This document shows positions 14,257 to 38,341 of a stretch of 38,341 nucleotides of DNA, piece after piece. Location: contig CAMBTO010000012.1 of the NCBI GenBank assembly GCA_945870865.1, positions 1 to 38,341 of the forward strand, read 5' to 3'. A program made the position numbers and the translations under genes. This DNA is from Klebsiella pneumoniae (GTDB lineage: Bacteria > Pseudomonadota > Gammaproteobacteria > Eutrophobiales > Eutrophobiaceae). The notes under the pieces were generated by a model. It ran no database searches and had not been told where the DNA came from. It saw only the letters and a program-made list of their open reading frames with translations. Position 1 is the stretch's first letter; every line of letters begins with the position of its first letter.

Positions 14257-15603
14257 ATGCACACCCACCGGATTAAGTCATTACTACTTAATACTATACT
14301 GATAGTTGCGGCAACACAGGCGAGTGCCGCGCCGCCTCCACCCGAGTATGTGAAGTTTTCACCGGGTTCAACCAAGGGTGTCCTTTATTATCCCGACCCG
14401 GCAGAGTTTCCCAAACCGCATGTGGCCATGATACTGATGCATCGCAATTCGAACTTCCTGTCGCATATCGCAACCGGGGAAATGTCGAAACGCGGTATTG
14501 TGGTACTGGGCATGAATCCGCGCTGTGATAATAATGAGGCGATGTGTGCCCCCTGGGAAAACAATGCGCTGGATGTAAAACAGGGAATTGAGCTGTTGCG
14601 CAAGATCCCGGGCATCGAGAAGGTCGTCCTGTTTGGCCACAGTGGTGGCGGCCCGACGATGAGCTTTTATCAGGCCGTGGCCGAGAACGGGGCGGCCTAT
14701 TGCCAGAAACCCGAGCGTATCTATAAATGTGATGACACGCTGAATGGTCTGCCGAAGGCAGACGGCATCATCCTGTGGGACTCCCACCCCGGTAACGGGA
14801 TCAATGCTGTACGCAGCCTCAATCCGGCTGTTATCAATGATGAGGCGATTATCGAACGTAATGCCGCACCGGAGATGGATCCCGCACTGGATCCGTTCAA
14901 CCCGGCCAATGGCTACAACCCCGATGGCGAGTCGCATTACAGCGATGCGTTCAAGGACAAGTATTTCCGTGCCCAGTCTGCGCGCATGAATCGCCTGATC
15001 GATATCGCCCAGGGAAAACTGAAACAGATCGAGGCCGGTACCTACCGTTATCCGGACGACGATGCGTTTATCGTTCCCCGCGCAGATGCCAGTCGCCTGT
15101 TCAGCATGGATCTCAGCATCGAGAACGCTTCCCTGAAACCGGCAAAATTGATCAAGAACGATGGCAGTATTGAGCATTGTTGTGCGGTCACCAGTGTACG
15201 CATCGCAGGCCAGTCCCCGGATACGCAGAAGGAATTCTGGTCCGGAACGATATTCCTGACGCTCCGATCCTTCCTCACTGTCCGCTCGATACGCTCTACC
15301 CATTCAATCAACGGCATAGACTGGTGCTCCAGCAATAACTCGGCCCCGTGCAGTCTGCAGAAGGTCTCGGTACCGTTGCTGGTCGTGGCGATGGGCGGAC
15401 ATTACTTTATCCATGACGGTGAAATCATCCATGAAATGGCCGCCAGTAAGGACAAGGAATTTATTGTGATTGAAGGTGCAACCCACGGTGGTACGCCCTG
15501 CACCGATTGCATGCCCGCCGGACAGAAATATGATGGGCGTTACGACAATGCGGTGAAGAACAATTTTGACTATCTGGCCAAGTGGATCAACGACCGTTAC
15601 TGA
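14257..15603 (+). CDS. exported alpha/beta hydrolase
   Basis: Signal peptide; GHSGGG nucleophile motif; C-terminal EGATHGG with candidate catalytic His. Confidence 0.75.
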   Translation: MHTHRIKSLLLNTILIVAATQASAAPPPPEYVKFSPGSTKGVLYYPDPAEFPKPHVAMILMHRNSNFLSHIATGEMSKRGIVVLGMNPRCDNNEAMCAPWENNALDVKQGIELLRKIPGIEKVVLFGHSGGGPTMSFYQAVAENGAAYCQKPERIYKCDDTLNGLPKADGIILWDSHPGNGINAVRSLNPAVINDEAIIERNAAPEMDPALDPFNPANGYNPDGESHYSDAFKDKYFRAQSARMNRLIDIAQGKLKQIEAGTYRYPDDDAFIVPRADASRLFSMDLSIENASLKPAKLIKNDGSIEHCCAVTSVRIAGQSPDTQKEFWSGTIFLTLRSFLTVRSIRSTHSINGIDWCSSNNSAPCSLQKVSVPLLVVAMGGHYFIHDGEIIHEMAASKDKEFIVIEGATHGGTPCTDCMPAGQKYDGRYDNAVKNNFDYLAKWINDRY

Positions 15604-22407: not shown

Positions 22408-24588
22408 CTAGGCCTGCAATGCCGCCAACACACGTTCGCGTGTAAACGGCATATGCGAAATGCGTTTGCCGGTCAGCCGGAAAAACGCCCCGGCAACCGC
22501 TGCCGCAATCGGTACATTACCAATCTCACCAAGGCCCTGCGGGCGGTCCTGTCCCGGGTCGACAAACTCGATATGGATCTGTTCCGGTGTATCGGACATG
22601 CGCATGACATTGTAGTCATGGAAATTGGTCTGCTGAACCACGCCACCTTTCACCGTGACCCTTTCATGTAACACACTGGACAATCCGTAGTTGATTCCAC
22701 TCTCGATGTTTGCACGTGCGGCGTCAGGCTGGACGACCAGACCACCATCGACCGCCATCCAGACCTTGTGGACCTTGATCTTGCCCAGCGCCTTGTTCAA
22801 CGAGGCCTCTACTACACAGGCCCCGAGTGAACCGGATCGCTCTGTGATTGATAGCCCCAGCGCACGTCCTTCAGGACGGGGTTTGTTCCATTCAGACATC
22901 GCAGCGACCTTTTCAAATACCTTGCGACCACGCGGGGTGATCGCCATCCGCTCCAGACGGAATTGAATCGGGTCGATGCCTTCGGCGACCGCCATACGAT
23001 CTATGAATTCCTCGATGGCAAAGACGTTAAACGGATGGGCAACGGCACGCCAGTGTTTCAGGCGGATGCCGTGTGATGTGCCGCGCAGGTCGATATACTG
23101 GTTTGGCACCTTGTAATAAAGGTCTATCTCCATGCCACCGGTCAGCAGGCTGGCGCCGTCACCGACGATACAATGTTTCCAACCAGTGACCTTGCCGGAG
23201 GCATCCAGCGCCGCCTCCAGGCATTGATAGTTTTGCGGACGAAACATGCCATAACCGATATCTTCCTCACGCGTCCAGATCAGCTTGACCGGTGTTTTCA
23301 CCTCGCGTGCGACCAGTGCCGCCTCAACCGCATAGTCACCCTCGGAACGGCGCCCAAATCCGCCGCCCATATAACACTGGTTTATCGTCACCTGTTTCTG
23401 ATCAAACCCGAGCGCCTGCGCCACCAGCTGACGACAGCGATCTGGCGACTGGCTGCCGTCCCACACCTCGACCTGGTCACCTGCCGCATTCAGACGCGCA
23501 ACGGCATTTAACGGCTCCATCTGGGCGTGATAACCATAATCTGCCCGGAAATCCGCCTTGTAGGTGCGTGCTGCACTGCCAAAGGCGGCATTGGCATCCC
23601 CGTTGGTAAAGACCGGTTCCGAGTTTGCGGCCGGATCGGCGTGCACCCGGACATAATCCTGTTCAAGTATGGTCTCGGAATCATATCCCGCTGAAAGCGT
23701 AGCGCCCCAGCTCACCTGTAATTGTTTACGGGCGGCCAGCACATGCGCGAACGATTCACCAACGATGGCCACACCGGTCGGTAACTTCACGGTTGCCGTG
23801 ATACCTTTCATGGCGCGGATATCGGCATCATTCCAGGCTTGCGGCGCCGCACCCTGCATCGGCGAATGGACGGTCGATGCGTACTGCATGCCCGGCAGAG
23901 ACACATCGATTGCAAATTGTGCAGTACCATTCACCTTTAACGGGATATCGCGGCGTGGCTGGGTCTTGCCGATCAGGCGGTATTGTTCCGGCTTTTTAAA
24001 ATCTGCCTCGCTGATCTCGGGTAGTTCTGTAACTTCGGCAAACTGGGCTATCTCGCCATAAGTAAGACGGCGCTGGCTTGCTGCATGAACTACGACACCG
24101 GGTTCGGTCATCAACTCGCTAACCGGTACATCCCAGTGCTTTGCAGCAGCACCCAGCAACACTTTACGCACCTGCGCCCCGGCTGTACGCATTACATCAA
24201 AATAACTGCGTACCGCACGTGAGCCGACAATGGCCATCGACTTGCGATCACCACTGCCATAACCATAGACCTGTACATCACTCGGTGCCCATTCCAGCTT
24301 CACCTTGTCCCAGTCCGCGTCCATTTCCTCAGCCAGCATCAATGGCACGCTGGTCATGGAGCCTTGCCCCATCTCTGCGCCAGGTGTATACATCGTAATG
24401 GTGTTGTCCGGGTGAATGGTCAGCCAGACCGAGATGGCGCTGCCGCCGGCCTGGGCCCTGGCCTCGGTTGCGGTGAGCAACATGCCGGCGCCGCTGCCAT
24501 TTACGGCAACGGCAAAACTGAACGCCGCCGTACCTTTCAGAAAATCACGGCGAGTAACATCTGTTTGTGGTTTGATAATCGTAGCCAT
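22408..24588 (-). CDS. Tat-exported xanthine-dehydrogenase-family molybdopterin subunit (isoquinoline 1-oxidoreductase beta-like)
   Basis: TRRDFLKGTAAFSFAVAV Tat signal; PGAEMGQGSMTSVPLMLAEEMDADW; GGGFGRRSEGDYAVEAALVA; GLGEIGNVPIAAAVAGAFF. Confidence 0.92.
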   Translation of the reverse strand: MATIIKPQTDVTRRDFLKGTAAFSFAVAVNGSGAGMLLTATEARAQAGGSAISVWLTIHPDNTITMYTPGAEMGQGSMTSVPLMLAEEMDADWDKVKLEWAPSDVQVYGYGSGDRKSMAIVGSRAVRSYFDVMRTAGAQVRKVLLGAAAKHWDVPVSELMTEPGVVVHAASQRRLTYGEIAQFAEVTELPEISEADFKKPEQYRLIGKTQPRRDIPLKVNGTAQFAIDVSLPGMQYASTVHSPMQGAAPQAWNDADIRAMKGITATVKLPTGVAIVGESFAHVLAARKQLQVSWGATLSAGYDSETILEQDYVRVHADPAANSEPVFTNGDANAAFGSAARTYKADFRADYGYHAQMEPLNAVARLNAAGDQVEVWDGSQSPDRCRQLVAQALGFDQKQVTINQCYMGGGFGRRSEGDYAVEAALVAREVKTPVKLIWTREEDIGYGMFRPQNYQCLEAALDASGKVTGWKHCIVGDGASLLTGGMEIDLYYKVPNQYIDLRGTSHGIRLKHWRAVAHPFNVFAIEEFIDRMAVAEGIDPIQFRLERMAITPRGRKVFEKVAAMSEWNKPRPEGRALGLSITERSGSLGACVVEASLNKALGKIKVHKVWMAVDGGLVVQPDAARANIESGINYGLSSVLHERVTVKGGVVQQTNFHDYNVMRMSDTPEQIHIEFVDPGQDRPQGLGEIGNVPIAAAVAGAFFRLTGKRISHMPFTRERVLAALQA

Positions 24589-24590
24589 AT

Positions 24591-25043
24591 TTAACCCTCC
24601 ACCGCTGCACGCTCTATCGCGGCTATTATCCGGTTGTAGGTGCCACACCGGCAGATATTGCCATCCATGTGGGTAATGATTTCATCGCGGGACGGTTTCG
24701 GGTTTGCACTCAACAACTCCGCCGCCTTCATGATCTGACCGGACTGGCAATATCCACATTGCGGGACCTGCTCGACTACCCAGGCCTTTTGTAAGGGATG
24801 GGATGCATCGGGCGACAGTCCCTCGATGGTGACGATATTACTTCCCGCTACATCACTGACTTTAATCGCACAGGAGCGCAAGGCCTTGCCATCTATATGG
24901 ACGGTACAGGCGCCACACAGGCCGGCACCACAACCGTATTTTGTACCGGTAAGATTAATGTGATCCCGGAGGACCCAGAGCAAGGGAGTATCGTTGTCGA
25001 CCTCAAGCGATACCGGATTGCCGTTCAGGGTAAATTCAAGCAT
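24591..25043 (-). CDS. (2Fe-2S)-binding subunit (isoquinoline 1-oxidoreductase alpha-like)
   Basis: [20 protein letters not shown] and [11 protein letters not shown]...[18 protein letters not shown] at 25043. Confidence 0.93.
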
Positions 25044-25169
25044 TACCACCCCCATAGAGCGATAGTGGAAAGATAAGACCAAAGTAATTACAGCTGATAC
25101 AAAAGCTACACGCGGATGCCGCGTCTGTCAATTTATGGATTGGCCCCTGACCGACACCTCACTTACCGG

Positions 25170-26720
25170 CTACTCTCCGGTGGGGGCCTCCGCCTCGGAC
25201 ATCCTGACAGTTCTTGGTTTGGCACCCAGTTTGACCAAAAGTTCTGCTGTGCTGGCATGATGGCCATACAGACCCCGGCTACCATAATCCGGGCTGATAC
25301 CGGATGCCATCGTCCACGGTGTTTCACCCTCCTCATTCACAGGGTCAATACCCGCACCGTTGTCTGCCAGATACTGCACCACGGAATCTGCGCCAGTAAA
25401 TGCAGCAATATGCATCGCTGTTCTACCCGTAGCGTCAACCGCATTGATGTCTACACCCAGCTTCAGCACTTCCTTAACGGTAACCAGCGCCTGGTCGATG
25501 TTTTCCCGGTTAGCGATATTTCCACCGGCCTGATAAGCGCAGGTTCCTGTACAAGCCACCTGGGCCGCTGCCATCAGTAACGTAATTCCCTGCTCATTTT
25601 TGATGGCGGGGTTTGCGCTGGATTTCAACAAAATCTGCATCATACGGGCCTCGGCCGAGGCCGTAGCAAGTAACAGCGGTGTGGCGCCGGCCATCGTAAA
25701 CGGATAGCCGTCTGGCCCCAATAGTTGTTCTTCACGGATTTGTACGTCTGGATCCGCCCCGGCCTGCAGTAAGGCCTCGGCCAGCCGGTACTGATTCCGT
25801 GGACGCAGACGGTAGACATTATCGTAGATAACCCCGTTTAACAGGGACAGTCCACTGCCTACCGCATGGTGCAGGGCGGTAATGCCGTTTTCATCGGCCG
25901 ACTTGATATCAGCACCGCGTTCGATCAAATAAAGGGCGAGGTCTTCGTGACCGCCAGCGCTGGCGATTACCAAGGAGTTCCCCTGTAGCAGGGTCGACTC
26001 ATTCGGGTCTGCACCGGCATCCAGCAAGGTTTTTGCCATCTCGATATCACCGGAGCGCGCAGCAAACAATAAGGCGGTGAAATCCCCGGAGGACACCTTC
26101 CAGTCACAAACACGACAGGTACCTGGTAACGTGGCTACCCCGGGCCGGGTACGTGTATGGAGATCAGCGCCACGCTGCAGTAACAAATCGACAATATCGG
26201 CATGTCCGGCGGCGGCAGCCCACATCAACGCGGTCTGCCCGCTTTCCGCCTCTGCATGATTCACATCCGCACCGGCATCCAGCAACAGAACGGCTGCCTC
26301 ACGCGCCCCGGTCCGCGCGCAATTCATCAGCACTGACTCACCCGACAAAAGTCCGGCATTCACATTTACAGCAGCCTGGAACAAGGCCTGCACCATCGCC
26401 GTGCTGCGGTTCGTGCAGGCCAGATACAACGGCGATACACCATATTCATTCACTGTATCCGGTCTGGCGCCGGACTGCAGCAAACGTGTCGCCAGCTCGA
26501 CATCATCATGTAAGACAGCCCAGTGCAGCGCCGTGGTCCCGTCCGGCATCGTGGCATTTACATCAACGGATTCATCCAGCAACACACGGACCGCCACGCG
26601 GTCACCTGACTTTACCGATTCAATCAGGGTTAAACCTGACGCAGCTGCCAGAGACAGACCCGGTATCAGCAATGACAGCATCACAGAACTGCGGGACAGC
26701 AACGACAACAATCGTGTCAT
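25170..26720 (-). CDS. exported ankyrin-repeat protein (module A)
   Basis: Signal peptide MTRLLSLLSRSSVMLSLLIPGLSLAAA; many ankyrin repeats (DGTTALHWAVLHDDVELATRLLQSGARPD); ATG 26720 with upstream acagga, longer start 26750 possible. Confidence 0.88.
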   Translation of the reverse strand: MTRLLSLLSRSSVMLSLLIPGLSLAAASGLTLIESVKSGDRVAVRVLLDESVDVNATMPDGTTALHWAVLHDDVELATRLLQSGARPDTVNEYGVSPLYLACTNRSTAMVQALFQAAVNVNAGLLSGESVLMNCARTGAREAAVLLLDAGADVNHAEAESGQTALMWAAAAGHADIVDLLLQRGADLHTRTRPGVATLPGTCRVCDWKVSSGDFTALLFAARSGDIEMAKTLLDAGADPNESTLLQGNSLVIASAGGHEDLALYLIERGADIKSADENGITALHHAVGSGLSLLNGVIYDNVYRLRPRNQYRLAEALLQAGADPDVQIREEQLLGPDGYPFTMAGATPLLLATASAEARMMQILLKSSANPAIKNEQGITLLMAAAQVACTGTCAYQAGGNIANRENIDQALVTVKEVLKLGVDINAVDATGRTAMHIAAFTGADSVVQYLADNGAGIDPVNEEGETPWTMASGISPDYGSRGLYGHHASTAELLVKLGAKPRTVRMSEAEAPTGE

Positions 26721-26739
26721 TTGATTTATCCTGTCCGTC

Positions 26740-28083
26740 TCAACCTGCATTCAACAGATTCAGACTGCCATTGCTGTCACCGAACCTGTCCACCGGCAGA
26801 TCCAGTTTATCCAGGAGGGTCAGATACAGGTTCGTCATCGGTGTCTTGTCCGGATAACGCAGGTGCATACCCCCCTGCAGATGACCGCTGCCGCCACCGA
26901 GCAGCACGACCGGCAGGTTTTGCAGCGCGTGCGCATTACCGTCACTGATCGAACTGCCAAACATGACCATGATATTGTCAAACAGCGAGCCGTCCACATC
27001 TGGCGTGGCACGCAGACGGTCCAGATAATAGGTCAGCAACGAGACATGATAATTGTCAATCTTTGCCAGTTTTTCCAGATTGCCCGGGTCGTTACGGTGG
27101 TGTGATATCGAATGATGGACATCGGGCACCCCGATCTGCGGGTAGGTGCGGTTGCTCTGTTCCGGGGCCATCATAAACGTAATCATGCGCGTCATGTCGG
27201 TCTGGAATGCGAGTATCTGCAGGTCAAACATCAGTTTCAGATGTTCGGTAAACTCCGGCGGGATACCGGCGGGACGCTCCATCGCGGGAAGTTCGCGCGC
27301 GGACTGCTGTTCGGCCATCTGGATCCGCCGTTCGACATCACGCATACCATCGAGGTACTGTGACAGGCGGGCACGGTCAGCTGCGCCGACATGACCCATC
27401 ATGGCAGTCGCCTCGGCAGTGATGTCGTCAAGTATACTTTTTTCCTTGTGTATCCGTGTCAGACGATCTGCGGTATTGGTGCTGTTACTCGCGCCGAACA
27501 GACGTTCGAACACGGCCCGTGGGCGATATTCCACCGGCAACGGTGTCGAGGGCGTACGCCAGGACAAGGTATTCATAAAGGCACAACTCCAGCCTTTTTC
27601 ACAATTACCTGCCACGTCCTTGCTGTGCAGTCCGAGTTCCAGTGAGGCGAGCTGGGTTTGCTTGCCGAGTTCATGAGCAATGATCTGATCGATTGAAATA
27701 CCGGTGATACCTTCACTCTTCGGATGCACACCGGTCAGGAATACACCGCCGGCCCGTTCATGTGGTGCAGTCTCGCCCTCGCCTGGCAGGGCATTACCGG
27801 CGCTGTTGCACAGACCGGTCAATACCAGCATGTTCTCGCGATAGGCGGCAAGCGGTTGTAACGTCCGCGACAGTTCGTAGGACTTGCCGGTGGCTGCCGG
27901 AGTCCAGTGCGCCATGTTCATGCCGTTCGGCGAGTATATAATTGACATGCGGCGTGGGGCCTGTGTCTGACGGTCTGGACTAGCCAGCACCGGTATCATT
28001 GCGTCCAGCATCGGTAAGGCCACGGCCGCGCTGGCGCCGCGCAAAAAGGTACGACGCGCCATTGGTTTCCTAGTTATCAGCAT
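26740..28083 (-). CDS. DUF1552-domain protein, Tat-exported (module A)
   Basis: MARRTFLRGASAAVALPMLDAMIP; SIIYSPNGMNMAHWTP; PHERAGGVFLTGVHP; TFMMAPEQSNRTYPQIGVPDVHHSISHH. Confidence 0.88.
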   Translation of the reverse strand: MLITRKPMARRTFLRGASAAVALPMLDAMIPVLASPDRQTQAPRRMSIIYSPNGMNMAHWTPAATGKSYELSRTLQPLAAYRENMLVLTGLCNSAGNALPGEGETAPHERAGGVFLTGVHPKSEGITGISIDQIIAHELGKQTQLASLELGLHSKDVAGNCEKGWSCAFMNTLSWRTPSTPLPVEYRPRAVFERLFGASNSTNTADRLTRIHKEKSILDDITAEATAMMGHVGAADRARLSQYLDGMRDVERRIQMAEQQSARELPAMERPAGIPPEFTEHLKLMFDLQILAFQTDMTRMITFMMAPEQSNRTYPQIGVPDVHHSISHHRNDPGNLEKLAKIDNYHVSLLTYYLDRLRATPDVDGSLFDNIMVMFGSSISDGNAHALQNLPVVLLGGGSGHLQGGMHLRYPDKTPMTNLYLTLLDKLDLPVDRFGDSNGSLNLLNAG

Positions 28084-30493
28084 GGTCAGGGACCCTCCTC
28101 GTCTGAAACGGTTGACTCTCAACAACATTCATAATTAATGAAGACAAACTGTGTTTATCCGCCTCTGTGCGGCGCATGATTTGGCGCATGGCAGGTGCAT
28201 CGGTATGGATCAGTCCACGGCCGAGTGCATAGGTGAGCAATTTTTCAATCGCCGTCATTACGAAATCATAATTGCGCTGCTGCACGAGTACCTTGCGCAA
28301 CTGGTCCGGCCCTTCGAAAGGTGTACCGTCCGGCAAGGTGCCGGTTGAATCTATCGGTGAACCAGACTTTGCATCGACCGTACGCCAGCGTCCAATGGCA
28401 TCATAGTTTTCAAGCGCAAAGCCTAACGGGTCCATGACCTTGTGACAACTGGCACACACCGAGTTCGCCCGGTGCTGTTCCATTTGCTCGCGCATCGTCA
28501 GTACCTTGCCTTCATCATTTTTGTCACGCAAACCGGGTACGTTGGGCGGCGGCGGCGGCGGCGGCGCACTCAGAATATTCTGCAGCACCCATTTGCCCCG
28601 TATCGTGGGTGCAGTCCGGTTGGCGTAGGAGGTCACGGTGAGGATGCTGCCCTGTCCCAGCAGTCCGCCACGCGTCCGGTCCGGCAAGCTGACCCGACGG
28701 AAATGACTGCCGTACACGCCGGGGATGGCATAGTGCCGCGCCAGACGTTCATTGATAAAGGTGTAGTCCGCATCCAGCAGTTCCAGCAAGGGCCGGTTAT
28801 TGCGCATCACGTAGTCAAAAAACAGCTCTGTCTCCTTGCGGAAGGCCACACGCAGATTGTCATCGAAATACGGGAACTGTTCGCCGTTCGGGGCGGCAGT
28901 GCCGAGCTGGTTCAGATTGAGCCACTGCGAGGCAAAGTTCTGGATCAGGGCGGTTGAACGCGGATCATTTAGCATGCGTTCAACCTGCTGCCTTAGTACC
29001 TCCGGTTTATGCAATCGGTCTCTGGCAGCAACGTTAAGCAATTCGTCATCCGGAATACTGCTCCAGAGAAAAAGTGCCATACGTGTCGCGAGATCAGTAT
29101 CCGCCAGTGGATATACCTCTCCTGCATCCAGCCGTTCGGGTCTCTGCTCGCTGATAAAAATAAATTTCGGACCGGCCAGTATCCTCTCCAGTGCGAGTCC
29201 GATGCCTTCATCGAACCCTCCCTTCTCCTGCCCCTGTTTGTAGAAGGCCATCAGTCCGTTCAACTCTGCCGCAGTCAAGGAACGACGGTAGGCACGTTGC
29301 CCCAGCGTAGACAGTATCTTTTTCGCACAGGCGGGGTCATCGTTGCGTTTTGGTTGGCAGACATAGACGCGCTGGTGACTCGGGCTGGCAGTGGACAATT
29401 TCGGATTGAATGGACCTTCAACAATGACCGTACTGACACCGGGCACACCGGCCTTGTATTGTGCATAGTCGATAATCGAATGTTCCGTATATAGCGGCTG
29501 CTCCGATATTGTTGTCGTGTCGACAAAGGCCACTGTTAATTCGCGTGTACCTGCCTTTGCCTCAAACTGCACCTCAAGGGCCTCGTCTGCAAAGCGTTCG
29601 TACTGTTCCTGCTCCGGCACACCCTGTGCACTGGTTGAATAGATACCACCCGACTTGCCATGTTTCTCGCCACCGATACTGAGCTTGCTGATCCGTACGC
29701 CATCGATACGCAAATCTATCTGATGGGCACCGTTCAACAGCCCGCGGATGTAGTCCCTGGAATTACGCTGCAAACGGATACGGACGATGTATTCACCGTC
29801 CATCGGGAAGTGATGTTTGACTGTCATTCCCCCGCGCGTACCTAACGGCATCGCCTCTCCAAGCCAGTCATCCTGCATCAGATAGCGTGGGACATTATAG
29901 GTCACCATGTCCGGCGGCATATCCGGCTGGCCCAACGCAAGCCGGCGTATCGTACGAGCGGCGACGATATATTGCTCAGCGAGCAACGGAGACAGGGTCA
30001 ACACTGCCCCGACATTATCAAAACCATACATGGTGTCATCGGGGGGTAGCAGTGTGTCATCATTGATTTCAACGGCGAGCAGTTCACGGATCGCATTGAA
30101 ATATTCTGTGCGATTCAGACGTCTTAAGGAGGCAAAGGCCGGCTGCGGATGCTCTGCACCGTATTTATCGAGGGAGGTTTCGAGATAAGCAGCAAACGAT
30201 TCGTAGGTTGCAAGGTCAGGACGCGGCATGCCGGCCGGAGGCATGGAACGGACCTTCAGTTTACGCAACACCCTTTCCCAGACCTCCGCCCCCAAACCAA
30301 CATCGGTCGTATTGATACCTTGCAGGCTCAGTCCGGCAGTGCGCAATGTATCATTATGGCAGCCAACACAGTACTGGTTGATGGTACCCTGATAGTCGAC
30401 TGGACCCGAGGGAGCAGTCGTTTGCTGCGCCGCACAAACTGACGCGTAACCAATCAGGCCGGCAACTATCCGAAAAACGACCCACTTTTGCAT
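28070..30493 (-). CDS. DUF1587/DUF1592/DUF1588/DUF1585-type cytochrome c-like protein (module A)
   Basis: Signal peptide; CVGCHND and CASCHKV; LRRLNRTEYFNAIRELL; LATRMALFLWSSIPDDELL; MDPLGFALENYDAIGRWR. Confidence 0.9.
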   Translation of the reverse strand: MQKWVVFRIVAGLIGYASVCAAQQTTAPSGPVDYQGTINQYCVGCHNDTLRTAGLSLQGINTTDVGLGAEVWERVLRKLKVRSMPPAGMPRPDLATYESFAAYLETSLDKYGAEHPQPAFASLRRLNRTEYFNAIRELLAVEINDDTLLPPDDTMYGFDNVGAVLTLSPLLAEQYIVAARTIRRLALGQPDMPPDMVTYNVPRYLMQDDWLGEAMPLGTRGGMTVKHHFPMDGEYIVRIRLQRNSRDYIRGLLNGAHQIDLRIDGVRISKLSIGGEKHGKSGGIYSTSAQGVPEQEQYERFADEALEVQFEAKAGTRELTVAFVDTTTISEQPLYTEHSIIDYAQYKAGVPGVSTVIVEGPFNPKLSTASPSHQRVYVCQPKRNDDPACAKKILSTLGQRAYRRSLTAAELNGLMAFYKQGQEKGGFDEGIGLALERILAGPKFIFISEQRPERLDAGEVYPLADTDLATRMALFLWSSIPDDELLNVAARDRLHKPEVLRQQVERMLNDPRSTALIQNFASQWLNLNQLGTAAPNGEQFPYFDDNLRVAFRKETELFFDYVMRNNRPLLELLDADYTFINERLARHYAIPGVYGSHFRRVSLPDRTRGGLLGQGSILTVTSYANRTAPTIRGKWVLQNILSAPPPPPPPNVPGLRDKNDEGKVLTMREQMEQHRANSVCASCHKVMDPLGFALENYDAIGRWRTVDAKSGSPIDSTGTLPDGTPFEGPDQLRKVLVQQRNYDFVMTAIEKLLTYALGRGLIHTDAPAMRQIMRRTEADKHSLSSLIMNVVESQPFQTRRVPDHADN

Positions 30494-30635
30494 CGAAAGC
30501 CCCCGCTCCGGGTAACACTGGATACATCTGCAACTGACACTAAATCATTGTAGAACTGTATTCCAAATAAGTCTGTACATCAATCCCGGCAAACCTGACA
30601 ACAATTCTGGCGAGATACTATCCGGGGCCACTTAA

Positions 30636-31109
30636 TTACTCCCCATCCGAACCCTCTATATATACCTCAACGGGCTTCAGTCCGGGCAGATTGTTAATTA
30701 CGGCCATCACTGCCGCAACAAACGATTGTTCAGGGTTTGCCCGGCATACCCGGTACATCGTGTACAACAGCCCCGCCAACTTCGACGGTGTCATGCTGAG
30801 GTACTTTTCCAGTGTATTTTCCGTCGTGTAATCTGAAAGTTGGCTACCCAACCATTCCCGATAATTGGCTGTTACGTGGGCGTGACTTTGTGCCTCAGTG
30901 ACACCGTAGGCATTAAAGTCATGGGAGTGATTTGGATCAGTTGAATTATGTTCATAGGTGGCGGCAAACTGGCCACAGCTACTCGCTTCAATTCCGGATG
31001 AGATGCGGGAAGGCGGTGCAGGCGATTGGCTGAAATAATAACCGGCACCGATAACAACCACCATCATCGCGAACAGGACCTTTGTGGTCAGTTCACGGGA
31101 TATATGCAT
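30636..31109 (-). CDS. hypothetical membrane-anchored protein
   Basis: 157 aa ORF with N-terminal TM (VLFAMMVVVIGAGYYFS), in line with neighbouring minus-strand genes. Confidence 0.5.
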   Translation of the reverse strand: MHISRELTTKVLFAMMVVVIGAGYYFSQSPAPPSRISSGIEASSCGQFAATYEHNSTDPNHSHDFNAYGVTEAQSHAHVTANYREWLGSQLSDYTTENTLEKYLSMTPSKLAGLLYTMYRVCRANPEQSFVAAVMAVINNLPGLKPVEVYIEGSDGE

Positions 31110-31143
31110 TGGTTGTTACGGTGCCGGCACAGGTAATGCAGGA

Positions 31144-32346
31144 TCAGGCGCAGAGGCGCTGGACTATCCCCTTGAACTCATCATCCGTTACCAGACGGCC
31201 CTGGCTCGTACCGATCTCCTTCACTTCATTCAGTACTGCACCCTTCTTGTCATCCGGTATGTTCAGGCCGAATTCCTTGCCCTTCATATCAATACTGACC
31301 AGACCACTCTTCTTGCCGAGTACGATCTTGCGATCCGCACCGACGATTTCTGCGGAATAAGGTTCAATCGCTTCCGGGATATGGAACTGACTGACGACAC
31401 CACCGCTCTCGCGGGTGAACAGAAAATCACCGACAACCGGCTTCCAGCCATCCACCTGGTATTTACCGGCCTTCTGCACGTACTTGGATATATCGCGTGC
31501 CTTGGTCAGATCCAGCTCGACCGGCATCTTGTACAGGGCCGACAGGGCAAGTGCTGCTTCGCAGATGTCCAGATTACCGGCACGCTCTCCCATACCATTG
31601 ATCGTACCCTGAATCCAGCTTGCACCACCACGCACAGCCGCTATCGCCGCTGCCGTTGCCAGACCAAAATCGTTATGACCGTGCCAGTGTACCGGGATAT
31701 CCGGTCCGACCCAGCTTTTGACTTCACGGATCAGGCGCTCCACGACTTCCGGTGCGCATACACCGATGGTGTCAACTACAGATACCTCTTCCGCACCTGC
31801 CTCAATTGTCTTCGCGTAAACATCTTTCAGATAACCGAGGTCACTGCGGGTGGAATCGACAGCGAAAAAGTTGACCTTCTTGATCCCGGCGTCCTTTGCA
31901 TGTTTGATCGCATCAACCGCTCGCTGCATGACCTTGTCACGGGTAAACCCGAACGCTTTCATCTTTCTGTCGCTGGTGGTGATCTCGATTAACAGATATT
32001 CAGTCCCGAGTTCAATATGCGCATCGACATCAGCGATCATCGCGCGGGCAAATCCCCAGATCTCGGAGGACAAGCCTGCGTCGAGGATACGACGTACGGC
32101 TCGGGTATCGTCATCTGAAACGCGAGGAAAGCCGGATTCAATCCTGCCCACACCCAGCGCTGCCAGTTTGCATGCTATCTGGAACTTGTCTTCGGTTGAA
32201 AACGACACGCCAACAGACTGTTCGCCATCGCGTAGCGTGGTGTCATAAAAACGAACCGGTTTGGAACGGTCAAATCCCGCCTGCACTTCAGGCGCGTCAT
32301 TTAGTTCGGTGGTCCAGAGGTTTTCCTTGTTAAATTTGATAGTCAT
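31144..32346 (-). CDS. homocitrate synthase / isopropylmalate-synthase family (HMGL-like) acyltransferase
   Basis: FYDTTLRDGEQSVGVSFS; VHWHGHNDFGLATAAAIAAVRGGASWIQGTINGMGERAGN. Confidence 0.88.
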   Translation of the reverse strand: MTIKFNKENLWTTELNDAPEVQAGFDRSKPVRFYDTTLRDGEQSVGVSFSTEDKFQIACKLAALGVGRIESGFPRVSDDDTRAVRRILDAGLSSEIWGFARAMIADVDAHIELGTEYLLIEITTSDRKMKAFGFTRDKVMQRAVDAIKHAKDAGIKKVNFFAVDSTRSDLGYLKDVYAKTIEAGAEEVSVVDTIGVCAPEVVERLIREVKSWVGPDIPVHWHGHNDFGLATAAAIAAVRGGASWIQGTINGMGERAGNLDICEAALALSALYKMPVELDLTKARDISKYVQKAGKYQVDGWKPVVGDFLFTRESGGVVSQFHIPEAIEPYSAEIVGADRKIVLGKKSGLVSIDMKGKEFGLNIPDDKKGAVLNEVKEIGTSQGRLVTDDEFKGIVQRLCA

Positions 32347-32880
32347 CGCAACATGCTCTCGTTAAATTATGAAACTGGTCAGAAACGGCAGGCTCAGCTA
32401 GCAGCTGATGATTACATCACCGGATCACGGGCTAGGACTTTCAATATAGACGAACTGCCCGGATGGAACAAGTTACCATGCGCCTGGGCAGTGTCTCAGA
32501 CTAAAATAGTCTGTCTTTTCCAAGGTGCGTAGCGACCCGGAAATCTTGCAATTATAGAGAGATAATATCCCTCGAACACATGTTCCTGACGTTTTCTACC
32601 GCCTATATCCCTGTAGGCGTCGACTACGCAGGGATGACAACCAGAGACAATACCTGCGTCTTCAGTAGTGGTCCGGGCAGAATGCAATAGCAGGATCGGC
32701 GCCTCAAAAATTTGTTCCAGACGTTTTTCCAGGACCTGTATCCGTTCAAGGGTCCCCGCCTTTGCAAATTGCTCAACCCTCGGGTGGACGTGAAATTCTC
32801 CCCCAGTTAAGTTCCTCGAAGGAATCTATCCTCCGCCTGTTATTAACCCGTAATTTTGTACTTCTGATTACGTTATATTT

Positions 32881-32897
32881 GCGTTATAATGTAACGC
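32881..32897 (+). promoter_or_regulatory. putative operator/-10 region of the RHH-ParC-like operon
   Basis: gcgtta-taatg-taacgc inverted repeat overlapping a tataat box, about 26 bp before the start codon; cgttata repeated 11 bp upstream. Confidence 0.45.
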
Positions 32898-32922
32898 ATT
32901 ATGCACTACTCTCAAGCCTGAT

Positions 32923-33120
32923 ATGGCCGCTAAAAAGACCACAACTCTGAATCTGCGGATTGATGCCTCGATCAAGGAGGCAATCAAACTCGCTGCCGAG
33001 AAGGACCATCGCAGCATAACGAATTTTATAGAACTACTGGTACGAAACCACTGTGAATATGTGGGAATTACCATACCGGAGCAACAAACCCTTTTTGAGG
33101 AAACGCGAGATGAACATTAA
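32923..33120 (+). CDS. ribbon-helix-helix-like DNA-binding protein
   Basis: TTTLNLRIDASIKEAIKLAAEKDHRSITNFIELLVRNH resembles an RHH/CopG/DUF1778 fold. Confidence 0.65.
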   Translation: MAAKKTTTLNLRIDASIKEAIKLAAEKDHRSITNFIELLVRNHCEYVGITIPEQQTLFEETRDEH

Positions 33121-33367
33121 AATCTTCAGGGCACTAATAGAGGCCGGCGCGATCAAACGGGTCCATATTATTGCTGAAGGTGACTTCTTCCGTATTGAGG
33201 CCGTGACCCAGACTGGTACCAATCAGTTAAATACGCTGAATGGAAAACTGAAAACCTGGAGCAGTCTGGATGCAACTGCCAAATGGTTACACGGCATGGG
33301 TATAGGCAACTGTCAGGTAGATATGAGTCGGTGGCAACCTGAACAACGAGGATTCAGGCTGGGATAA
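33110..33367 (+). CDS. ParC-like (plasmid partition-associated) small protein
   Basis: MNIKIFRALIEAGAIKRVHIIAEGDFFRIEA...KTWSSLDATAKWLHGMGIGNCQVDMSRWQPEQ; ATG overlaps the upstream stop by 11 bp. Confidence 0.55.
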   Translation: MNIKIFRALIEAGAIKRVHIIAEGDFFRIEAVTQTGTNQLNTLNGKLKTWSSLDATAKWLHGMGIGNCQVDMSRWQPEQRGFRLG

Positions 33368-33370
33368 CGT

Positions 33371-33408
33371 AAAAACGGGCTGCAGCTTCATCAGCTGCCA
33401 AGCCCGTT
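33371..33408 (-). terminator. rho-independent terminator of module B operon
   Basis: aacgggct-gcagct...agctgc-ca-agcccgtt stem; minus strand ends in ttttt (33371-33375). Confidence 0.75.
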
Positions 33409-33431
33409 ACGCAGACTTGAGTCGGATTATT

Positions 33432-35099
33432 TTATTGCCCGGACATGTTCCGATATTTACCGGTAAATGGTTTTGCACCGAGCTCCAACAATAATTCAAC
33501 CATCTCCTTGTCTTCATTCATACCGGCATTATTGGTAGCACGGCGATATCGATGGTCATAATCGCCATCGCCAATATTACGGTAGTAACGACCTTCAGGA
33601 TCACCCATCGCAAGCATCAGCGGTGTCATGCCGTATCGATCTTTCGCATTGATATCAGCACCATTTTCAACCAGGAAACGTGTCAAATCAAGCCAGCCTA
33701 CAGTTACGGCAAAATGCAGTGCCGTCCTGCCATCGGCAACACCTTTCGCGGGGCCATCAGGGGCAGGTTCTGTCAACTGATCCTTGACACTGCCACCCAG
33801 CGTAAGTACGAGTTTCGCCGCATCAATAGCTTCCTGCTCACTTCGTGCACCACGCTCGGCACCGGCGCCGGATGCAAGCATAAATAATGTCGCACCACCT
33901 GCTGTGGTTGCCTTTATATCGGAAACTTCTTCAAGTATTTCCATCGCCTCCATATTGCCGGCCGCCGCAGCTATCAATAACGGCGTTGCTCCTACAGGAT
34001 CAATCTGCGGGGGGTCATCATCAGAAATGGCCATAAACGGATTATCCAGGTACGGATAGGAATATTTAATGCGAACATTCGGATCTGCACCGTGGTCCAG
34101 CAGTGCATTAACCAGTTTCACCATGTCCGGGCGTTTCCAGGCAGGACGATCAACCGCAGAAGGTCTGAATCCATTCAGGAACAACAAACCGTTATGCAGT
34201 GCAAAATGCAGCGGGGCAACACCCCAGGCATCGGTAATATTCGGGTCAGCGCCCTTGTCGAGCAAAAAGCTTGCGAGTGCTTCATGTCCGCTGGCAATCG
34301 CGATTATTAACGGGCTTCCATGTTCAGCGTGTGGAGTATTAACATCCGCACCTGCGTCCAGCAAGACACGAGCAGAATCAACGTCACCCTGTTGAGCAGC
34401 AAAATGAAGCGCAGTGAATCCGCCCGATACCTTGGCAAAGCGGACGGAAGCCGGATAATTACCACCCCACACACTCCTGCCTGCAGGTAGTTTGATGACA
34501 TACGGTTCCGGTTCAGGCGTCAGTTTCGAACGCGCATGCACATCGGCACCCTTGTCAACGAGGGCCTTGACTATATCACTGTGCTGTTCTGCCACCGCCC
34601 ACATCAAGGCGGTCTGCTCGTCCTTGTTTTCCCTGGCATTCACCTCTGCACCATGTTCAAGCAACAGTATTACAGCTTCTTTTGCACCGACATTTGCACA
34701 TACCATCAATGGTGTAACACCGGTTGTTTTTGCCAGATCCGGATTCGCATCCGCTTCAAGCAGGCTTTTCACAATTGTGGAATTACCATTCTCACAGGCC
34801 AATGACAACGGACTGACACCGAGATCATCCGCGATATTGACATCAGCGTCATTACGTAACAACAGATCTACAGCCTGCTGATCATTGTTATAAACGGCCC
34901 AGGCCAGGGCAGTCGTTCCATCCCCGCGCATCGTATTTACATCACGGCTGGCCTTACCCTTCAACAGTGACTGCAGGGCAGCAATATCACCATCCCTTGC
35001 CGCATCCAGCAATTGCAGTTGATCAGCCCAGGTAGAACTTCCCGTCAGACACAAGACTGCCAATGAACACATCTGTACACTTCTTATCAACTGAAACAT
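33432..35099 (-). CDS. exported ankyrin-repeat protein (module B)
   Basis: Signal peptide (MCSLAVLCLTGSSTWA) and multiple ankyrin repeats (DGTTALAWAVYNNDQQAVDLLLRNDADVN). Confidence 0.88.
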   Translation of the reverse strand: MFQLIRSVQMCSLAVLCLTGSSTWADQLQLLDAARDGDIAALQSLLKGKASRDVNTMRGDGTTALAWAVYNNDQQAVDLLLRNDADVNIADDLGVSPLSLACENGNSTIVKSLLEADANPDLAKTTGVTPLMVCANVGAKEAVILLLEHGAEVNARENKDEQTALMWAVAEQHSDIVKALVDKGADVHARSKLTPEPEPYVIKLPAGRSVWGGNYPASVRFAKVSGGFTALHFAAQQGDVDSARVLLDAGADVNTPHAEHGSPLIIAIASGHEALASFLLDKGADPNITDAWGVAPLHFALHNGLLFLNGFRPSAVDRPAWKRPDMVKLVNALLDHGADPNVRIKYSYPYLDNPFMAISDDDPPQIDPVGATPLLIAAAAGNMEAMEILEEVSDIKATTAGGATLFMLASGAGAERGARSEQEAIDAAKLVLTLGGSVKDQLTEPAPDGPAKGVADGRTALHFAVTVGWLDLTRFLVENGADINAKDRYGMTPLMLAMGDPEGRYYRNIGDGDYDHRYRRATNNAGMNEDKEMVELLLELGAKPFTGKYRNMSGQ

Positions 35100-35149
35100 T
35101 TCGCCATCATTCCTCAGTTTTATACAGTCAGTGTTACTTAAGCCGGTTA

Positions 35150-36511
35150 TCAGGCCAGACCTTTCAACATACCGGTAGAATCACTGGTTTCATTCGACAG
35201 GTACTCCTCGGAAGGAGCGCCAAACATGTCCAGAACAGCCACATGCAGGTTAGACAATGGCTCAGACTTGAAACGTATATGACGTCCTCCCCTGATCCGG
35301 CCTTGACCATTACCAAACAATGCAATCGGGACGTCGTTATGGACATGATTATTCGCGTCACTTAATGCGCCACCGGCCACAATGATCGTGTTGTCAAGCA
35401 GAGACGAGCCATCTGACTCTTTTGCAGCACGCATCTTCTCAAGGAAATAGGCCAGCATTTCACTTTGATACCGATCCACTTTCTTCAATGAGTCAATTGC
35501 GGTAGATACACCCTTATGATGCGAGAGGGAGTGATGACCATCCTGCGCGCCCAGTTCGGTATAGTTACGGTTGGTGCCTTCATGGCCAAGCATAAAGGTA
35601 ATTACCCTGGTCATGTTGGTCTGGTATGCCAGCAGCATTAAATCAAACATCAGTTTACTGTGATCCATCACATTGTCCGGGATACCCGCCGGGCGCCTGA
35701 TATCCATCTGGGCAAGGCCATCCTTGTTACTGTCAGTTCTTGATTCCGAGGCCTGTATGCCACGCTCAACATCACGTACTGCATCAAAATATTCTTCCAG
35801 CTTGTAACGATCACTTTCGCTGACTGCACCCATCATGTCCCTGATCCGGACACTGACGGAATCAAGCACACTGCTCTGTCTCTGCATGCGCCGACGCATC
35901 GCCTCGGGATCCAGTGTGTCGGTATCACCAAACAGTCGTTCAAAAACCTTGCGTGGATTGTTTTCCGCGGGTAAGGCGGCTGTGGAGGTACGCCAGCTCA
36001 TTGTGGCTGTGTAAAATCCGTTATAATCAGCCGCTTGCTGGCCCGCCCACTCTGCCGGGTCGAGTCCCAGTTCCATGGAGGTTAACGGGGTGTCCTTGCC
36101 GATATGATTTGCGATTACCTGATCGACCGAAATACCAACACGATCCGCAAACGGATGTACACCCGTCAGGTAAGAGGCACAAGGACGCTCATGTGGTCCA
36201 CCACGTTCACCAGGATGTAAATCAGCCGCCTTGACATCCAGACCACTCAACACCAGCATCTGGTCCCGGAACGAGGCCAGTGGTTCCAGCGTCGGCGTTA
36301 TTTCAAAGTTTTCACCTTCAACCTTCGGTATCCAGTTCTCCATAATCCTGCCTGTGGGCAGGTAAACATAGCCTATCCTTAGTGGGGGAGTTCCAGCGCT
36401 GCTGGATGCTGCAAAGGCAGGAACCATGGCATCCAGAAATGGCAAGGCCAACGCCGTACCTGCTCCGCGTAAAAAAGTACGACGGGGTAATGCTTTTTTA
36501 AAGATTATCAT
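35150..36511 (-). CDS. DUF1552-domain protein, Tat-exported (module B)
   Basis: LPRRTFLRGAGTALALPFLDAMVP; PHERPCASYLTGVHP; ITFMLGHEGTNRNYTELGAQDGHHSLSHH; homologous to 26740..28083. Confidence 0.88.
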   Translation of the reverse strand: MIIFKKALPRRTFLRGAGTALALPFLDAMVPAFAASSSAGTPPLRIGYVYLPTGRIMENWIPKVEGENFEITPTLEPLASFRDQMLVLSGLDVKAADLHPGERGGPHERPCASYLTGVHPFADRVGISVDQVIANHIGKDTPLTSMELGLDPAEWAGQQAADYNGFYTATMSWRTSTAALPAENNPRKVFERLFGDTDTLDPEAMRRRMQRQSSVLDSVSVRIRDMMGAVSESDRYKLEEYFDAVRDVERGIQASESRTDSNKDGLAQMDIRRPAGIPDNVMDHSKLMFDLMLLAYQTNMTRVITFMLGHEGTNRNYTELGAQDGHHSLSHHKGVSTAIDSLKKVDRYQSEMLAYFLEKMRAAKESDGSSLLDNTIIVAGGALSDANNHVHNDVPIALFGNGQGRIRGGRHIRFKSEPLSNLHVAVLDMFGAPSEEYLSNETSDSTGMLKGLA

Positions 36512-38341
36512 GGCTTGCAACCCTCCTGTATTGAAACGGTTTACTCTTGATGACTCCCTGGATCACGTCTGACCAGGTATGGTTTTCAGATTTTGTCTCT
36601 TCCACGATGCTGCGTACCGCGGGTGCATCATAATAATCAAGCGGCCTGCCCAACGCGTAGGTAAGTACCTTCTGGGTTGCGGTATGAACAACCCTTTGAG
36701 AATGCTTCATAAATGCCTTGCGGAATTCCTGCGGGCTGCTGAACTGACTGCCATCAAACAGAACGCCGGAAGAGTCCACTTCAGCGTTTGCATCCAGATA
36801 TCTGCTTCGGTAAGAGCCGATCGCATCAAAGTTTTCCAGTGCAAATCCGATCGGATCCATGAGCTTGTGACAGGAAGAACAGACTGGATTGGCGCGATGG
36901 GCTTCCATCGCCTGTTTCAATGTCAGCGCCTTGCCTCCTGCACCCTTGACCTGTAATGCGGGCACATCCTCCGGAGGCGGTGGCGGCGGCATATTCAGCA
37001 GATTCTCCAGTATCCATTTCCCGCGTAATACCGGTGACGTTCGATTATTAAAGGCAGTCGCAAGTAACAAACCTCCCTTACCCATCAGGCCCTGCCTTTC
37101 CTCGTATCCCGCCAGAGACACCCGGCGGAACTTGCTGCCGTAGACATCCTTGATACCGTATTGCTGTGCCAGTCTTTCATTAACAAAGGTATAATCCGAC
37201 GTAAGTAACTCCAGCACACTGTGATCTTCACGTATCATACTTTCAAACCAAAGTGCTATCTCCTGTTTGTAGGCCTCACGTAATTCACCATCAAACGCGG
37301 GGAATAAATCCAGTAACGGTTCTGAAATCTCCAGTTTGGTAAGTGATAACCATTGTTTGCCGAAATTCTGTATAAAGATTTCGAACCGTAGGTCGGCCAT
37401 CATACGTTCGACCTGCTTTTCCAGTGTCCCTGGTTCATGCAGTTTTCCCTTTTCTGCCACCTTGAGCAATTCTTCATCTGGAACACTGCTCCAGAGGAAA
37501 AATGACAAGCGGGAAGCGAGTTCAATATCGCTGATGGGATACACGTCGCCCGGTTTTGCATCCGCCGGATCCTTCTCTATACGGAACAGGAACTCCGGAC
37601 CGGCCAGTATGCTTTGTAAAGCGAGGTCGATACCGCTGGTAAAATCTCCGTCCTGACTTCCGGTACGGAACAGGCCCATCAGCTGATCCTTCTCCTTGTC
37701 TGTGACTGTCCGGCGATAAGCCTGACGGGCCAGATTGTTCAGTATTTTTTCTGCACAACGCGCGTCATCCTGCGAGGCCGGTGTACATATAAATATTTTC
37801 TGTCTGCTTTTTGTCTCGCCCGGTCCTTTCGCATTATACGGTCCGGTGATTGTCACATTTGCTACAGCTGGTTTACCACCCTTGTAAGACATCATGTTTT
37901 GCAGTGATAACTGAGGTGCCTGAATACCGGTTGGTTTGGTGTCCTGCTCAAGAAATGCCACACTGACCTTGTGGGCACCTGCACTGGCCGAGATACGAAA
38001 CTCCAGCTTTTCATCCGCTGTAAATTCATACCCAATCTGCTCTGGATCCCCCGCATAATGTACAACCTGGTTTTCGGTGAAAATCGGGCCGGAACGACCA
38101 TGGACTTCACCGCCGATTTTCATTGCCCCCAGGCGTTCATGATCCAGACGAACTTCAAGTGTATGCTCATCCCTCAGACCACGGATATATCCCTCAAGAT
38201 TTCGGAGCAGGGTAATTCTGACGGTATATTCACCCTCCATCGGGAAATTATGACTGATGACTGTGCCCCCACGACTGCCAAACGGCATGTCATCATTCAT
38301 GCGATCCGTTTGTCTGAGTGTATCTGCAAGATTGTATGTCT
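36498..38341 (-). CDS. DUF1592/DUF1588/DUF1585-type cytochrome c-like protein, N-terminus beyond the window (module B)
   Basis: CSSCHKLMDPIGFALENFDAIGSYRSR; LASRLSFFLWSSVPDEELL; frame stays open to 38341 (TYNLADTLRQTDRMNDDMPFGSRGG, compare TYNVPRYLMQ in module A). Confidence 0.88.
   Translation of the reverse strand, partial: TYNLADTLRQTDRMNDDMPFGSRGGTVISHNFPMEGEYTVRITLLRNLEGYIRGLRDEHTLEVRLDHERLGAMKIGGEVHGRSGPIFTENQVVHYAGDPEQIGYEFTADEKLEFRISASAGAHKVSVAFLEQDTKPTGIQAPQLSLQNMMSYKGGKPAVANVTITGPYNAKGPGETKSRQKIFICTPASQDDARCAEKILNNLARQAYRRTVTDKEKDQLMGLFRTGSQDGDFTSGIDLALQSILAGPEFLFRIEKDPADAKPGDVYPISDIELASRLSFFLWSSVPDEELLKVAEKGKLHEPGTLEKQVERMMADLRFEIFIQNFGKQWLSLTKLEISEPLLDLFPAFDGELREAYKQEIALWFESMIREDHSVLELLTSDYTFVNERLAQQYGIKDVYGSKFRRVSLAGYEERQGLMGKGGLLLATAFNNRTSPVLRGKWILENLLNMPPPPPPEDVPALQVKGAGGKALTLKQAMEAHRANPVCSSCHKLMDPIGFALENFDAIGSYRSRYLDANAEVDSSGVLFDGSQFSSPQEFRKAFMKHSQRVVHTATQKVLTYALGRPLDYYDAPAVRSIVEETKSENHTWSDVIQGVIKSKPFQYRRVASHDNL

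What the first reader, a model, noticed from the sequence alone, without database searches (positions are those of the whole stretch)
25170..38341. Two divergent copies of a DUF1592 / DUF1552 / exported-ankyrin operon in one locus
Both sets have the same order on the same strand: multi-domain heme-c protein (DUF1592 class), Tat-exported DUF1552 protein, then an ankyrin protein with a signal peptide. In both sets the DUF1592 stop and the DUF1552 ATG overlap by the same 14 bp (28070-28083, 36498-36511), with an aggaggg ribosome-binding site 9 nt upstream of the ATG. The copies are clearly diverged, so this looks like a maintained paralogous module with possibly different substrates. DUF1552/DUF1592 are domains of unknown function best known from Planctomycetes/Verrucomicrobia. 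Pairing them with a periplasmic ankyrin protein suggests a three-part exported redox or binding complex.
Basis: partly seen in the sequence, partly recalled or inferred. Interest (0 to 1): 0.8.

Follow-up and report, generated by a model that had tools for sequence, protein, structure and literature searches.

The report
Multi-copy exported cytochrome–ankyrin three-gene module
An uncultured gammaproteobacterium carries ten diverged copies of an undescribed three-gene set (an exported two-heme protein, a twin-arginine-exported protein with a sulfatase-like fold, and an exported ankyrin-repeat protein) that is inherited as a unit in Acidobacteriota and some other bacteria, so it is a real module of unknown but testable function.

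Summary
The window's two sets are two of ten DUF1592–DUF1552–ankyrin triads in this 2.17 Mb genome (10/10/10 adjacent). Sister species carry 13–20 DUF1552 genes; 20 other members of the family have at most one. Among the 80 best-matching named public loci, 79 have DUF1592 directly upstream of DUF1552 and 72 have an ankyrin gene directly beside the pair. In a complete Vicinamibacterales chromosome 31 of 40 DUF1552 genes and 30 of 36 ankyrin clusters are linked (chance 3.5). Distances of the three proteins co-vary (r 0.82–0.91 within the genome).

New here: DUF1552 is predicted to have the alkaline phosphatase/sulfatase fold, with an invariant His where sulfatases keep the nucleophile. DUF1592 is a two-heme protein with a CBM35/36-like jelly roll and otherwise no fold match. 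TonB-dependent receptors and PQQ dehydrogenases are enriched nearby. I found no paper describing the triad in the open-access full text searched. Most likely it is a substrate-specific exported redox complex acting on carbohydrate-like compounds, with the ankyrin as dedicated scaffold or assembly factor. That function is inferred, not shown.

The parts
25170..26750 (-). set 1 ankyrin-repeat protein with N-terminal signal-like segment (526 aa)
   Evidence: Ank_2 2e-54; start overlaps DUF1552 stop by 11 bp
26740..28083 (-). set 1 DUF1552 (HXXSHH) protein, Tat-type signal, AP/sulfatase fold predicted
   Evidence: PF07586 7e-96; AF2 pLDDT 86; Foldseek 1p49 E 2.4e-7 prob 1.0
28042..28056 (-). twin-arginine motif of set 1 DUF1552 (RRTFL, residues 10-14)
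   Evidence: alignment A1; Tat-like motif in 82/83 relatives
27760..27762 (-). codon of invariant His108, at the position of the sulfatase nucleophile (inferred)
   Evidence: invariant in 91 sequences; motif spacing compared with sulfatases and DUF1501
27097..27114 (-). HxxSHH-type His cluster (residues 324-329)
28070..30493 (-). set 1 DUF1592-class protein: N-terminal cytochrome c, DUF1587, CBM-like jelly roll, DUF1595, DUF1592, DUF1588 (second heme), DUF1585
   Evidence: AF2 pLDDT 91.8
30356..30370 (-). first CxxCH heme motif (residues 42-46)
   Evidence: alignments A2 and A5
28442..28456 (-). second CxxCH heme motif (residues 680-684)
   Evidence: alignments A2 and A5
29399..29911 (-). jelly-roll domain (residues about 195-365), CBM35/36/6-like fold, no Pfam match
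   Evidence: AF2 secondary structure; Foldseek hits to CBM35/CBM36/CBM6, prob 0.99-1.0
33432..35099 (-). set 2 ankyrin protein (555 aa)
   Evidence: Ank_2 2e-64
35150..36511 (-). set 2 DUF1552 protein
   Evidence: PF07586 8e-90
36498..38341 (-). set 2 DUF1592-class protein, N-terminus cut by contig end

Best explanation
Shown: the three genes form one inherited module, copied many times per genome and kept as orthologous lineages between species. Inferred mechanism: the two-heme DUF1592 protein is exported, binds a carbohydrate-like or similar organic ligand with its CBM35-like jelly roll, and passes electrons between that substrate (or a neighbouring PQQ, molybdenum or FAD dehydrogenase) and the periplasmic cytochrome pool. 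The DUF1552 partner is folded in the cytoplasm, exported by Tat, and is a sulfatase/alkaline-phosphatase-fold protein whose nucleophile position is an invariant His; it probably makes a modified metal- or substrate-binding site beside the cytochrome. The ankyrin protein is the dedicated exported scaffold or assembly factor that pairs each cytochrome with its own DUF1552. Diverged copies serve different substrates, often imported by a neighbouring TonB-dependent receptor.
For: 10/10/10 adjacency in the own genome. Sister genome G001: 20/20 DUF1552 with an ankyrin next door, 2 ankyrin genes elsewhere (compared by hand). 72 of 80 public loci linked. Complete chromosome OY282382: 31/40 and 30/36 linked against 3.5 expected. 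Co-divergence r 0.82-0.91, p 0.0001-0.0002 within the genome and r 0.83-0.91 within each arrangement class. Export and heme motifs. Sulfatase/AP fold for DUF1552, with weak profile support to DUF1501 (E 0.002) and of DUF1501 to sulfatases (E 9e-5). CBM-like domain. TonB receptors and PQQ enzymes near triads: G002 8/27 and 5/11 within 8 kb, P 7e-4 and 9e-4; G000 TonB 5/26, P 0.014, PQQ 1/3, not significant; PQQ is the commonest Pfam family among 108 flanking genes (9). Cbp2D of Cellvibrio japonicus, whose annotation includes DUF1587, is a redox protein needed for growth on cellulose (PMC8981238, PMC12542752).
Against: No biochemistry was found for any of the three. Most of the DUF1592 protein has no fold match, and its jelly roll also hits TNF/C1q folds, so sugar binding is not established. 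Neighbours differ from copy to copy and half the copies in the genome have no TonB receptor nearby. About a fifth of DUF1552 genes in OY282382, several of them divergent, lack a neighbouring ankyrin, so the pair can exist without it. Whether X132 of Cbp2D equals the DUF1595-1585 part was not tested by sequence here.
Confidence: 0.45

Rival explanations
1. The ankyrin is a maturation or protection factor, not a lasting subunit: it helps fold, load or protect the heme protein, as periplasmic AnkB does for catalase KatB in Pseudomonas aeruginosa.
For: A periplasmic ankyrin in an operon with a heme enzyme and needed for its full activity is described for AnkB/KatB (cited in PMC2830190). The triad ankyrin is likewise exported and next to a heme protein.
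Against: Co-divergence with DUF1552 is as tight as with DUF1592 (r 0.83 and 0.82), and one ankyrin is kept per copy (ten per genome); a general helper would not need one for each paralogue. Heme c is attached by its own machinery (general knowledge).
Confidence: 0.25
2. DUF1552 is the enzyme proper, a hydrolase or lyase of the sulfatase/phosphatase superfamily using a His nucleophile or a rearranged metal site, and the cytochrome only binds ligand or recycles a cofactor.
For: Sulfatase/AP fold; invariant His108, 324, 328, 385 at and around the expected active site.
Against: The Asp-Asp metal ligands after strand 1 of sulfatases are replaced by PNG, and no Ser, Thr or Cys occupies the nucleophile position. 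A non-catalytic structural role is also possible.
Confidence: 0.15
3. The three genes are only a co-transferred cassette: linkage and matching trees come from block duplication and transfer, without functional coupling.
For: Patchy distribution (6 of 299 sampled Pseudomonadota including the window's own genome), genus-level gain in one family and close Acidobacteriota relatives in the tree suggest horizontal spread.
Against: Linkage persists over deep divergence in several phyla and in two different arrangements (38 downstream, 34 upstream and mostly divergent), which must have arisen by rearrangement that kept the three together.
Confidence: 0.1

Closest known systems
PSCyt/PSD (planctomycete-specific) cytochrome genes beside families of unknown genes, noted in freshwater Verrucomicrobia (He et al. 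2017, PMC5615132)
   Same: PSCyt3-type heme proteins carrying PSD domains, usually next to a family of unknown genes; high copy number; proposed role in carbohydrate use
   Different: The passages read do not mention an ankyrin partner, co-divergence or a fold for the partner; here most full-length pairs carry an ankyrin gene
Cbp2D (X183-X132) of Cellvibrio japonicus (PMC8981238, PMC12542752)
   Same: Exported redox protein with two CxxCH domains; annotation includes DUF1587; linked to polysaccharide use
   Different: Cbp2D carries CBM2, FN3 and X158 domains; no DUF1552/ankyrin partner is described in the passages read
AnkB/KatB of Pseudomonas aeruginosa (cited in PMC2830190)
   Same: Periplasmic ankyrin protein encoded beside a heme enzyme
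   Different: Partner is a catalase; no DUF1552 or DUF1592
Alkaline phosphatase/sulfatase superfamily
   Same: Predicted fold of DUF1552
   Different: Canonical nucleophile and Asp-Asp metal ligands not conserved; Tat-type signal; cytochrome partner

Membership tests
DUF1592 (PSD/PSCyt3) multi-domain cytochrome | DUF1587, 1595, 1592, 1588, 1585 in one protein with CxxCH | tested here: met
   two CxxCH in 69/71 relatives
DUF1552 (HXXSHH) | PF07586 match and HxxSHH-type motif | tested here: met
   7e-96 and 8e-90; motif in A1
Alkaline phosphatase/sulfatase superfamily | characteristic fold | tested here: met
   predicted model only: Foldseek E 2.4e-7 prob 1.0, TM about 0.4
Alkaline phosphatase/sulfatase superfamily | Cys/Ser/Thr nucleophile and Asp-Asp metal ligands | tested here: not met
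   invariant His108 at the nucleophile position, PNG in place of DD; residue pairing by motif spacing and topology, not by superposition
Polysaccharide utilisation locus | glycan-specific CAZymes with a TonB receptor in one locus | tested here: not met
   TonB receptors near 5 of 10 copies but no glycoside hydrolase among the neighbours scanned
AnkB-type helper of a heme enzyme | ankyrin needed for activity of the adjacent heme protein | not testable with these tools
   only the arrangement is comparable
X183-X132 redox proteins (Cbp2D) | sequence homology of X132 to the DUF1595-1585 part | not tested
   papers annotate DUF1587 in Cbp2D and a Cellvibrio CBM2 protein as DUF1592; sequences not compared

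The most novel reading that the evidence does not exclude
A new class of multi-copy, substrate-specific exported redox complexes: a CBM-bearing diheme oxidoreductase plus a sulfatase-fold partner whose nucleophile has become histidine, each pair locked together by its own periplasmic ankyrin, acting as an oxidative counterpart of glycoside-hydrolase loci in Acidobacteriota and some gammaproteobacteria.
Probability: 0.3. Interest if true: 0.85.

Novelty: new variant of a known kind. Interest (0 to 1): 0.64.

Why it matters
The DUF1592/DUF1552 family has no assigned function that I could find, yet single genomes carry 10 to 40 copies. Adding a third, co-inherited partner and two fold assignments turns 'unknown domains' into a defined module with testable contacts, cofactors and substrates. 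It also bears on how Cbp2D-type redox proteins act in cellulose degradation, a question left open in a 2025 paper (PMC12542752).

Tried and rejected
Sequence searches of the PDB with both proteins and their profiles found no credible relative. Full-text searches for DUF1552 with DUF1592, for HXXSHH and for ankyrin with 'planctomycete-specific cytochrome' returned no paper. Rfam found no RNA in the window. NCBIfam named none of the three (ankyrin hits are far below cut-offs). Direct profile comparison of DUF1552 with sulfatases was weak (E 0.09), so the fold assignment rests on the model and on the DUF1501 bridge. The 14-bp overlap was considered as a module signature and dropped: only 5 of 10 copies have it. 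The apparent eleventh ankyrin (contig C46 end) is nearly the same sequence as the cut-off C61 ankyrin, so probably an assembly variant or a recent copy rather than a lone gene. Linkage in Planctomycetes and Verrucomicrobia could not be sampled.

Full report
Observation. The window is a complete contig of a 2.17 Mb draft genome, and the second DUF1592 gene is truncated by its end. The genome holds ten DUF1585-containing (DUF1592-class) proteins, ten DUF1552 proteins, and ankyrin matches in eleven places, ten of which lie directly after a DUF1552 gene. The eleventh, at a contig end, is nearly identical to the cut-off ankyrin of another triad. So this genome's detectable Ank_2 ankyrins are dedicated to the module.

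Spread. Four sister species carry 20, 18, 17 and 13 DUF1552 matches; of 20 further family members in other genera only one has a single copy. Only 6 of 299 sampled Pseudomonadota, the window's own genome among them, have any. In G001 all 20 DUF1552 genes have an ankyrin beside them and two ankyrin genes lie elsewhere (compared by hand). In G002 the ankyrin list was truncated; with my own models on the fetched neighbourhoods 17 of 18 DUF1552 genes are in full triads. A genome-collection scan returned 80 loci from Acidobacteriota, Pseudomonadota, Gemmatimonadota and a MAG labelled Acidimicrobiia. 79 have DUF1592 directly upstream of DUF1552; 38 have the ankyrin directly downstream and 34 directly upstream of DUF1592, mostly on the other strand; four with room on both sides lack it. 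These are the 80 best matches to the query, so a complete Vicinamibacterales chromosome was checked as a less biased sample: 31 of 40 DUF1552 genes and 30 of 36 ankyrin clusters are linked, against 3.5 expected by random placement, maximum 10 in 5000 trials. My own models add one more linked case (L137), and several of the unlinked ones are divergent, with shorter or weaker DUF1592 matches.

Co-inheritance. Pairwise distances of the three proteins among the ten own copies correlate at r 0.91 (1592/1552), 0.82 (1592/ankyrin) and 0.83 (1552/ankyrin), permutation p 0.0001-0.0002. Within 28 downstream-ankyrin loci r is 0.83-0.89 and within 21 divergent loci 0.86-0.91. In the DUF1552 tree most own copies pair with a G002 copy, so the paralogues predate the species split and have been kept; Acidobacteriota sequences lie next to and among them. 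Together with the gap in the rest of the family this suggests gain by transfer followed by expansion (inference).

What the proteins are. The DUF1592 protein has two conserved heme motifs, at residues 42-46 and 680-684. Its model is confident (pLDDT 91.8), and the only part with a fold match is a jelly roll at about residues 195-365, missed by Pfam, resembling CBM35, CBM36 and CBM6; TNF/C1q-type jelly rolls also match. The DUF1552 model (pLDDT 86) matches steroid and aryl sulfatases and other members of that superfamily. The stretch HERAGGVFLTG lines up in spacing with the sulfatase CSPSRASLLTG helix and with the H-x8-TG stretch of several DUF1501 proteins. This puts invariant His108 where the sulfatase nucleophile sits, and the order of strands and helices in the model agrees. 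Profile comparison supports the kinship weakly: DUF1552/DUF1501 E 0.002, DUF1501/sulfatase E 9e-5, DUF1552/sulfatase E 0.09. The metal-binding Asp pair of sulfatases is absent. DUF1552 has a Tat-like motif in 82 of 83 relatives and the ankyrin has a signal-like start in 63 of 70.

Context. In the own genome, TonB-dependent receptors lie beside five triads (C62, C44, C39, C10, C61), and FAD, PQQ or molybdenum oxidoreductases beside four (C31, C39, C10, C12 set 1). Near-triad enrichment within 8 kb: G002 TonB 8/27 (P 7e-4) and PQQ 5/11 (P 9e-4); G000 TonB 5/26 (P 0.014) and PQQ 1/3 (not significant). These tests assume random placement and were not corrected for multiple testing. Among 108 flanking genes of other loci the commonest Pfam family is PQQ (9 genes); no distance-matched control set was scanned.

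Interpretation. Linkage, co-divergence and maintenance are shown. That the three proteins form a complex, that it transfers electrons, and that copies differ in substrate are inferences from export signals, hemes, the CBM-like domain and neighbours. Literature gives a partial anchor: Cbp2D of Cellvibrio japonicus, annotated with DUF1587, has a cytochrome domain able to reduce LPMOs and is needed for growth on insoluble cellulose (PMC8981238, PMC12542752). He et al. noted PSCyt genes beside unknown families and proposed a carbohydrate role (PMC5615132). Full-text searches found no paper joining DUF1552 with DUF1592, or ankyrin with these cytochromes; the library covers open-licence papers only, so absence is not proof.

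Verdict. A real, widespread, apparently undescribed three-gene module; a new variant of the PSCyt/DUF1552 kind. The mechanism proposed is the best fit but unproven.

Noticed in passing
window 22408-25082 (-): Two-gene molybdenum hydroxylase (2Fe-2S subunit and MoCo-binding subunit) directly downstream of set 1; NCBIfam matches to aldehyde/xanthine dehydrogenase types are far below cut-offs.
   Followed up: partly
window 31144-32346 (-): Single-domain isopropylmalate/homocitrate-synthase-like gene between the two sets; no NCBIfam model reaches its cut-off.
   Followed up: no
L028, L180, L185: Head-to-head (divergent) pairs of triads, so two copies may share a promoter region.
   Followed up: no
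L040/L067/L070 (OY282382.1, G338): One Vicinamibacterales chromosome with 40 DUF1552 matches.
   Followed up: yes
L193 and others (G342): A Blastocatellia MAG with 32 DUF1501 matches; several DUF1501 proteins share the His-x8-TG stretch with DUF1552.
   Followed up: partly
L027 end and L026 start (contigs C46, C61): Nearly identical ankyrin ends on two contigs: assembly variant or recent duplication.
   Followed up: partly
L026:7939-9146 (+): IS3-like transposase pair close to the C61 triad.
   Followed up: no
window 14257-15603 (+): 448-aa ORF with no Pfam or NCBIfam match and a relative on contig C19.
   Followed up: no
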